Positions 26,496-27,494 of a stretch of DNA of 64,000 nucleotides are shown in pieces. The position numbers and the translations under genes were made by a program. Position 1 is the stretch's first letter; every line of letters begins with the position of its first letter. Under the pieces are notes generated by a model that saw nothing but the letters and a program-made list of their open reading frames with translations, was not told where the DNA came from and did no database searches. The DNA lies in IMG/VR virus record IMGVR_UViG_3300020477_000001, positions 94,302 through 158,301 of that record; one strand, written 5' to 3'. Origin of the DNA: a virus.

Positions 26496-26596
26496 ATATT
26501 TGTGAATGATTTTTGGACAAATAAAGGAACAACAACACTGAATCTCTAGGCGATATTTGTGAATGATTTTAAGGCAAATAAAGGGAACTACAACAC
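26496..26596 (+). repeat. two hairpin-plus-handle units (second repeat family)
   Basis: 26496-26538 and 26553-26596: ATATTTGTGAATGATTTT, a variable loop, CAAATAAAGG and then ACAACAACAC or AACTACAACAC. ATTTG pairs with CAAAT. The last 20 nt align with the 3-prime end of the 36-nt repeats, showing common origin. The intervening unique sequence is only 14-19 nt. Confidence 0.6.
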
Positions 26597-26916
26597 TCTG
26601 TTAAAGTCCGTCCAACACGAGGCGGCGAGAATTGATGCCGATCAAAATACTTAATTATTGATTGACTAATTTTTTTGTCGCTCATTTGTGAACGTCAAAG
26701 AGGCAAATAATATAGGGGAATTAAATTAGATATTTTAGATTAATAGGGACTAATTAAACACGATGCTCAATCCCAATATTGTTAATTTATGAATGATTTT
26801 TTGCCAAATAAGGGTTATTTAACATAAGGGAATTTCGTATACAAGAAAAATGTTGCCCCGGAGAAAACACCCCCTTATAAGAAATATATTAAAGGAACTA
26901 AAACACAACAAAAGTG
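26597..26916 (+). other. non-coding stretch with degenerate hairpin units
   Basis: Contains ATTTGTGAACG-type hairpins near 26682 and 26790 whose handles have decayed, and one intact handle GGAACTAAAACAC at 26894-26906. No gene seen. Confidence 0.5.
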
Positions 26917-27039
26917 ATGAAGAATTTAATTTTAATTATTATTATTTTAATTATTACTGGTTGTTATACAGCCAAGGAAAGAGTAATGCCTCTTGGTCCC
27001 CATGATGATAGCTATGGTAAGAATTGGGTAAGTAATTAA
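26917..27039 (+). CDS. 40-aa lipoprotein
   Basis: MKNLILIIIILIITGCYTAK: signal helix and lipobox ITGC, predicted lipidation at Cys16; mature part of 25 residues (ERVMPLGPHDDSYGKNWVSN). Sits inside the array region with a handle 11 nt before it and another right at its stop. A small o-spanin or exclusion-type lipoprotein are possibilities. Confidence 0.6.
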   Translation: MKNLILIIIILIITGCYTAKERVMPLGPHDDSYGKNWVSN

Positions 27040-27494
27040 GGAACTGTAACACCAAATCCAGCATGGCGTTTAGATATTTTGGGAACTAAAACACGGGTAT
27101 AGCTCATTTGAAATAGGAACTAGAACACATGTGGTGCGCCATTATATTTGTGAACGCGATTTTTGCAAATAAAGGAACTACAACACCAGCGGTTTCAGAA
27201 GCTATCTGTGAACGCGATTTTTGCAAATAAAGGAACTACAACACCCGTCATGGAATTATAACACTAACTCCTCAGATGGAACTACAACACGTTGAGATAC
27301 TGCTTTCGCGGGAGCTATCTGTGAACACAATTTTTGCAAATATAGGGAACTACAACACGACGGGAACTCACGACGGAGAGTTAATCAAGGAACAACAACA
27401 CGAAAACTTTTTCTGTATTCTTGATCTTGTAATGGAACTACAACACTCAAGGGCGGCTCATTTTAATTTAAAATAAAAAAGGGAACTACGACAC
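27040..27494 (+). repeat. eleven handle copies, three with the conserved hairpin
   Basis: Handles at 27040, 27082, 27116, 27174, 27232, 27252, 27278, 27346, 27389, 27434 and 27482 (consensus GGAACTACAACAC). Those at 27174, 27232 and 27346 follow the hairpin (A)TTTGTGAACGCGATTTTTGC or a close variant. Each handle is followed by a different sequence of 13-34 nt. Open frames here are by-products of the repeats. Nothing else is visible in this stretch. Confidence 0.62.

What the first reader, a model, noticed from the sequence alone, without database searches (positions are those of the whole stretch)
26496..27358. Second repeat family: hairpin ATTTG...CAAAT joined to the same handle
Seen: at least six units (near 25732, 26496, 26553, 27145, 27203, 27315) carry ATTTGTGAAYG, a variable loop, CAAAT and then the handle; two more (26682, 26790) have lost the handle. 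Their last 20-22 nt align with the 36-nt repeats. Stem kept, loop varied, handle kept is what selection on an RNA stem-loop plus a linear tag would leave.
Basis: seen in the sequence. Interest (0 to 1): 0.7.

Follow-up and report, generated by a model that had tools for sequence, protein, structure and literature searches.

The report
Phage guide-RNA repeats with own tracrRNA

Summary
The repeats are real, but the emphasis moves from the hairpin to the handle. The 13-nt handle GGRACTRCAACAC occurs 47 times in the window (2.9 expected), 46 on one strand. Eight ATTTGTGAAYG...CAAAT-type units exist as described. Their stem shows no compensatory change; variation breaks it, and RNAalifold predicts no pairs. 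What persists is GAAYG...AAATAA plus the handle, with a 15-16-nt unique spacer before four of six units.

The same phage encodes a 502-aa TnpB/Cas12-like protein preceded by a promoter-like sequence, a ~150-nt structured RNA and a terminal hairpin. Two other phages carry the same cassette. In each, a site just before the terminal hairpin is complementary over 7 nt to that phage's own handle (AGTTCCT:AGGAACT; AATCCTC:GAGGATT): a tracrRNA-crRNA-like covariation. In one phage a handle array lies directly downstream of the effector gene. Among 22 other contigs, multiple handles occur in four; two more have one isolated match each.

Best reading: a phage-encoded, adaptation-free, V-F/V-U-like RNA-guided system with minimal repeats dispersed beyond arrays, often just after stop codons. 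The window's effector reads N at the third RuvC acid, so it may bind DNA without cutting. Targets were not found.

The parts
13829..15337 (+). TnpB/Cas12-like effector gene, 502 aa; third RuvC acid reads N (HERNFNAANN)
   Evidence: Pfam OrfB_IS605 and Cas12f1-like TNB, PADLOC Cas12u4/Cas12f, NCBIfam guided_TnpB
13622..13650 (+). promoter-like sequence (TTGACC, 17 nt, TAGCAT) before the RNA cassette
   Evidence: consensus scan, 9 of 12; similar promoter-like sequences stand at the same place in G014 and G022
13657..13805 (+). tracrRNA-like RNA: stem 1, stem 2 with GGTTG loop, anti-repeat, terminal hairpin 13770-13805
   Evidence: fold z = -3.6; homologous cassettes upstream of both sister effectors, stem 2 changes on both sides
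13754..13760 (+). anti-repeat-like site AGTTCCT, complementary to the handle's AGGAACT
   Evidence: 7-nt cognate run against 4 non-cognate; p 0.0013 for shuffled sites
25914..26479 (+). CRISPR-like array: nine 36-nt repeats (first degenerate) ending in the handle, period 65-67 nt, spacers ~29-31 nt
   Evidence: direct-repeat family D1/D2
25735..25776 (+). ATTTG...CAAAT unit with a handle carrying an insertion
26498..26538 (+). ATTTG...CAAAT unit with handle
26555..26596 (+). ATTTG...CAAAT unit with handle
26684..26708 (+). ATTTG...CAAAT segment, handle decayed
26785..26809 (+). ATTTA...CAAAT segment (pair broken), handle decayed
27146..27186 (+). ATTTG...CAAAT unit with handle
27204..27244 (+). 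ATCTG...CAAAT unit with handle (pair broken)
27317..27358 (+). ATCTG...CAAAT unit with handle (pair broken)
24855..28234 (+). main cluster of handles GGRACTRCAACAC (array, units and solitary copies)
30332..30381 (+). two solitary exact handles, the first overlapping a stop codon
21091..21103 (+). solitary handle one base after a stop codon
28294..29253 (+). neighbouring AAA ATPase gene used to find related phages
   Evidence: 49% identical to the gene next to the handle cluster of G001

Best explanation
The units are crRNA-like repeats of a compact, phage-encoded, RNA-guided system. The 3' handle (GGRACTRCAACAC here, GAGGATTAVRACA in sister phages) pairs through about 7 nt at its start with an anti-repeat in a tracrRNA-like RNA encoded just upstream of the effector gene; its unpaired tail leads into a guide of about 16 nt (longer spacers in the 36-nt-repeat array). 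A TnpB/Cas12f-like protein would bind this dual RNA and be directed to DNA matching the guide. Handles occur in an array, in ATTTG...CAAAT units, singly between genes and right after stop codons, so many guides would have to be released from longer transcripts. The ATTTG...CAAAT segment is a variable 5' extension, perhaps aiding processing, not a conserved stem. In the window phage the third RuvC acid is N, so silencing by DNA binding is more likely than cutting; in both sister phages the D/E/D triad is intact. Shown in sequence: repeats, strand bias, effector, RNA cassette, handle/anti-repeat covariation, physical linkage in G014, stop-codon adjacency. Inferred: expression, processing, DNA targeting, silencing, and that targets are host or rival mobile DNA.
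For: Handle 47 against 2.9 expected, 46 on one strand. Effector with TnpB/Cas12f domains in the same genome. RNA cassette upstream of all three known effectors, with a handle-complementary site at the homologous place that changes together with the handle (7-nt cognate run, p 0.0013 and 0.0008 for shuffled sites; 4 nt non-cognate). Handle array directly downstream of the effector in G014. G022, found through the effector alone, also has handles. Handle substitutions at positions 4 and 5 are all wobble-compatible. A 16-nt guide is shared by G014 and G022 while the sequence after it differs; spacers of 15-16 nt before four of six units. 7 of 13 handles outside the main cluster lie within 14 nt after a stop codon (0.6 expected).
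Against: No targets found in the own genome, kin contigs, phage or plasmid records. The effector lies 11 kb from the handle cluster in the window. Duplex energy alone is clearly beyond shuffles only in G022. Only three effector-bearing phages are known, two of them close to each other, so the covariation rests on two independent states. As a bare count the co-occurrence of handles and effector is not significant, and G001 and G010 have handles but no effector on their fragments. No expression data.
Confidence: 0.8

Rival explanations
1. One reading: selected RNA stem-loops joined to a linear tag, a structured non-coding RNA family in its own right.
For: Eight units with a constant 25-nt ATTTG...CAAAT segment, far beyond chance; single units can fold.
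Against: No compensatory change, pairs broken in the window and in G001, RNAalifold predicts no pair. Most handles have no such segment.
Confidence: 0.07
2. RNA anti-CRISPR or host-CRISPR mimicry: the handles imitate repeats of a host type V system and occupy or exploit the host effector.
For: Viruses do carry solitary repeats and mini-arrays matching host systems (PMC10651486, PMC11656645).
Against: The phage has its own effector and an RNA that matches the handle, and both change together across phages. The host is unknown, so identity with host repeats was not tested.
Confidence: 0.08
3. The guides regulate the phage's own genes (a TldR-like autoregulator).
For: The window effector has an altered RuvC site, as do TldRs and Cas12m; handles lie next to phage genes.
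Against: Guides match the own genome no better than control stretches.
Confidence: 0.05
4. The handles are ribosome-binding sites of tiny reading frames.
For: AAGGA resembles a ribosome-binding site, and a Serratia phage has GAGGATTAAAACATG at a real gene start.
Against: Start codons 8-18 nt downstream are not enriched: 9 of 43 against 15.8 expected in the window, 17 of 41 against 18.4 in G014.
Confidence: 0.03

Closest known systems
Cas12f (type V-F) CRISPR systems
   Same: Compact RuvC effector of similar size with TNB zinc finger (PADLOC Cas12f, Pfam PF07282); crRNA plus tracrRNA (PMC13186708). From memory, the Un1Cas12f1 repeat ends GAATGAAGGAATGCAAC, similar in layout to AAATAAAGGAACTACAACAC: a lead, not a test.
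   Different: Repeat reduced to a 13-nt handle and dispersed outside arrays; third RuvC acid N in the window; no Cas1 in the three records.
Type V-U systems, including the V-U2 locus of cyanophage vB_AphaS-CL131
   Same: TnpB-like effector with a CRISPR-like array in a phage (PMC6293099); best PADLOC model here is Cas12u4.
   Different: CL131 has a compact array of 36-nt repeats beside the effector; here most handles are solitary, the window's array is 11 kb away, and a tracr-like RNA is seen. V_cas_c2c8 score is far below its cut-off (136.5 against 350).
IS200/IS605 TnpB with omegaRNA
   Same: Same superfamily; guided_TnpB model 227.7 bits against a cut-off of 100; ~16-nt guides as in TnpB (own knowledge).
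   Different: Many guides, handle separated from the scaffold RNA, scaffold upstream of the gene.
TldR, phage-encoded TnpB-like nuclease-dead repressors
   Same: Phage-borne TnpB relative with an altered nuclease site; a dual-guide RNA form has been reported (PMC13418256).
   Different: TldRs have one or few guides with known targets; here ~40 handles, targets unknown; sister effectors keep the D/E/D triad.
Cas12m (type V-M)
   Same: Non-canonical RuvC site (HDD in Cas12m2) and interference by binding (PMC10442227).
   Different: Single crRNA of 36+20 nt, different altered residue, weak sequence similarity.

Membership tests
Cas12f / type V-F | compact effector with RuvC and TNB zinc finger | tested here: met
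   PF07282 and PF01385 over cut-off; PADLOC Cas12f 2.3e-60
Cas12f / type V-F | tracrRNA with anti-repeat complementary to the crRNA repeat | tested here: met
   7-nt cognate complementarity at a homologous site, sequence level only
Cas12f / type V-F | intact D/E/D RuvC triad | tested here: not met
   N at the third position in the window protein; intact in G014 and G022
Cas12f / type V-F | placement inside the Cas12f clade of a tree | not tested
   only profile scores were compared
CRISPR-Cas in general | array of repeats with unique spacers | tested here: met
   nine-repeat array in the window, 14-unit array in G014
CRISPR-Cas in general | adaptation genes (cas1) | tested here: not met
   PF01867 absent from G000, G014, G022, control positive; many type V-U systems lack it too
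TldR | inactivated RuvC domain | tested here: inconclusive
   D to N at one catalytic position by alignment; activity unknown
TldR | guide matching a regulated gene | tested here: inconclusive
   no own-genome target; host unknown
RNA anti-CRISPR (Racr) | repeat identical to that of a host CRISPR system | not testable with these tools
   host unknown
conserved RNA stem-loop family | compensatory base-pair changes | tested here: not met
   0 pairs with a change on both sides

The most novel reading that the evidence does not exclude
A 'CRISPR without an array': a phage RNA-guided silencer in which a 13-nt repeat, recognised through a trans-acting tracrRNA, is placed after stop codons and between genes, so that new guides arise by local sequence change and not by Cas1 spacer capture, and one nuclease-altered effector is multiplexed by about 40 guides embedded in phage transcripts.
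Probability: 0.35. Interest if true: 0.85.

Novelty: new variant of a known kind. Interest (0 to 1): 0.7.

Why it matters
It would show a step between single-guide TnpB and array-based Cas12: a split guide RNA whose crRNA half has shrunk to a 13-nt portable tag that can sit in any transcript. It would also be a phage system that multiplexes one small effector without adaptation genes, and it supplies short natural repeats and a defined tracr-like RNA that can be tested directly in laboratory strains.

Tried and rejected
Stem covariation: tested, not supported. Self-targeting guides: no excess over controls. Targets in kin contigs: 6 hits with up to 1 mismatch in 16 nt against 9 per control set. 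Targets in phage and plasmid records: nothing convincing. tRNA genes as targets: suggested by tRNA-like letters in a few guides, but 0 of 80 genome loci with an exact match to the conserved guide TTCGCCGTAGCTYAAG lay in a tRNA. Ribosome-binding-site reading: start codons not enriched. Serratia/Erwinia phage matches to the G014 array: the Serratia one was read and is a gene start. Handle-pattern matches in unrelated contigs (L014, L016-L026): coding sequence or simple repeats as far as read. Rfam: nothing at gathering score in the window, only sub-threshold microRNA models on the RNA cassette. AlphaFold model of the effector: mean pLDDT 43, not used.

Full report
Setting. The window is part of a 158,301-nt virus record. 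Around 24.8-30.4 kb it holds a family of short repeats on one strand: the 13-nt handle GGRACTRCAACAC occurs 47 times in the window with up to two mismatches against 2.9 expected, 46 of them on +. Nine copies end a 36-nt repeat with a period of 65-67 nt, a CRISPR-like array; eight are, or were, the ends of ATTTGTGAAYG...CAAAT-type units; the others stand alone.

The hairpin. A related phage, G001 (L015/L045), has four alignable units. On the 12-unit alignment the proposed five-pair stem has no compensatory change, three of five pairs depart only by broken cells, no measure exceeds the shuffles, and RNAalifold finds no pair. Well conserved are GAAYG in the nominal loop, AAATAA, and the handle. 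The spacer after the previous handle is 15-16 nt before four of six units.

The effector. Window 13829-15337 encodes 502 aa with OrfB_IS605 and Cas12f1-like TNB domains; the best PADLOC models are Cas12u4 and Cas12f, and NCBIfam calls it guided_TnpB. The third RuvC acid reads N (HERNFNAANN) where aligned solved relatives and the two sister phages have D. The zinc-finger cysteine pairs are present.

Relatives. A search with the adjacent AAA ATPase brought 22 loci. In whole-contig searches of 22 other contigs with two handle patterns, multiple matches occur only in G001 (16, window type), G010 (7), G014 (32) and G022 (3; GAGGATTAVRACA type). Two further contigs have one isolated exact match each to the first pattern, G019 (GGCATTACAACAC) and G005 (GGTATAATAACAC); the other 16 have none. 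Of 20 contigs reached through the ATPase and searched with the effector, only G014 encodes a homologue (32% identity), and a handle array lies directly downstream of that gene. G022, found through the effector alone, also has handles. G001 and G010 are fragments of 39 and 26 kb without the effector. As a bare count this co-occurrence is not significant; its weight comes from the linkage in G014 and from G022.

The RNA. Upstream of all three effectors lies a promoter-like sequence, a ~150-nt RNA and a GC-rich terminal hairpin. Stem 2 keeps its GGTTG loop while both arms change together (CGGTG/CACCG against CCGTC/GACGG); a degenerate pattern of it was found only in G014 and G022 in the scanned viral contigs, which may leave out the window's own record. 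Just before the terminal hairpin, AGTTCCT (window) or AATCCTC (G014, G022) is complementary to that phage's handle over 7 nt, against 4 for the non-cognate pairs (p 0.0013 and 0.0008 for shuffled sites). The 36-nt repeat's AGGGACT keeps the pairing through one G-U. Handle substitutions at positions 4 and 5 are all wobble-compatible. Duplex energy alone is clearly beyond shuffles only in G022.

Guides and placement. G014 and G022 share a 16-nt guide (one transition) whose downstream sequence differs, and other handle sites keep their place with changed guides. Outside the main cluster 7 of 13 handles lie within 14 nt after a stop codon against 0.6 expected. No targets were identified. Cas1 is absent from the three effector-bearing records.

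Reading. The simplest account is a phage-encoded V-F/V-U-like system: handle plus guide acts as crRNA, the upstream RNA as tracrRNA, the TnpB/Cas12-like protein as effector. Everything beyond sequence (transcription, processing, DNA binding, silencing against cutting) is inferred from work on Cas12f, Cas12m and TldR (PMC13186708, PMC10442227, PMC13418256). A phage V-U2 locus is already known (PMC6293099). Unusual here are the reduction of the repeat to a 13-nt tag, its dispersal into intergenic and post-stop positions, and the visible repeat/anti-repeat coevolution.

Noticed in passing
G019:C1:8330-8342 (+); G005:C1:659-671 (-): One isolated exact match each to the handle pattern GGNAYWRYAACAC (GGCATTACAACAC, GGTATAATAACAC) in kin contigs otherwise without handles; surroundings not examined, chance not excluded.
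   Followed up: no
window 13806-13828; L057 ~2626-2600 (-); L064 ~5925-5970: Handle-like letters follow the terminal hairpin of the RNA cassette in all three phages (CCCTACAACAC; AAGGATTATAATT; AAGGATTCCGACG), possibly a relic of a single-guide omegaRNA or simply the effector's ribosome-binding site.
   Followed up: no
L057 ~1130-900 (-); L064 ~7440-7700: A small ORF after the effector (MTEEER...) contains an in-frame handle in G014 and G022, with different guide letters in an otherwise similar protein.
   Followed up: partly
L012:5176-5580 (-): ARAGORN calls a tmRNA in the same virus record, outside the window; L013 holds tRNA-Arg and tRNA-Val.
   Followed up: no
window 24702, 25382, 25452, 25538, 25801, 27942, 28259: Several well-formed sigma-70-like promoter sequences on + strand within the handle cluster (24 promoter-like sites in all on both strands against 14.8 expected), which could drive guide transcription.
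   Followed up: no
L028, L031, L033, L042: Other kin phages carry their own dispersed repeats with inverted arms around genes (for example ACTTGGCACG, AAGTTGGCA), unrelated in sequence to the handle.
   Followed up: no
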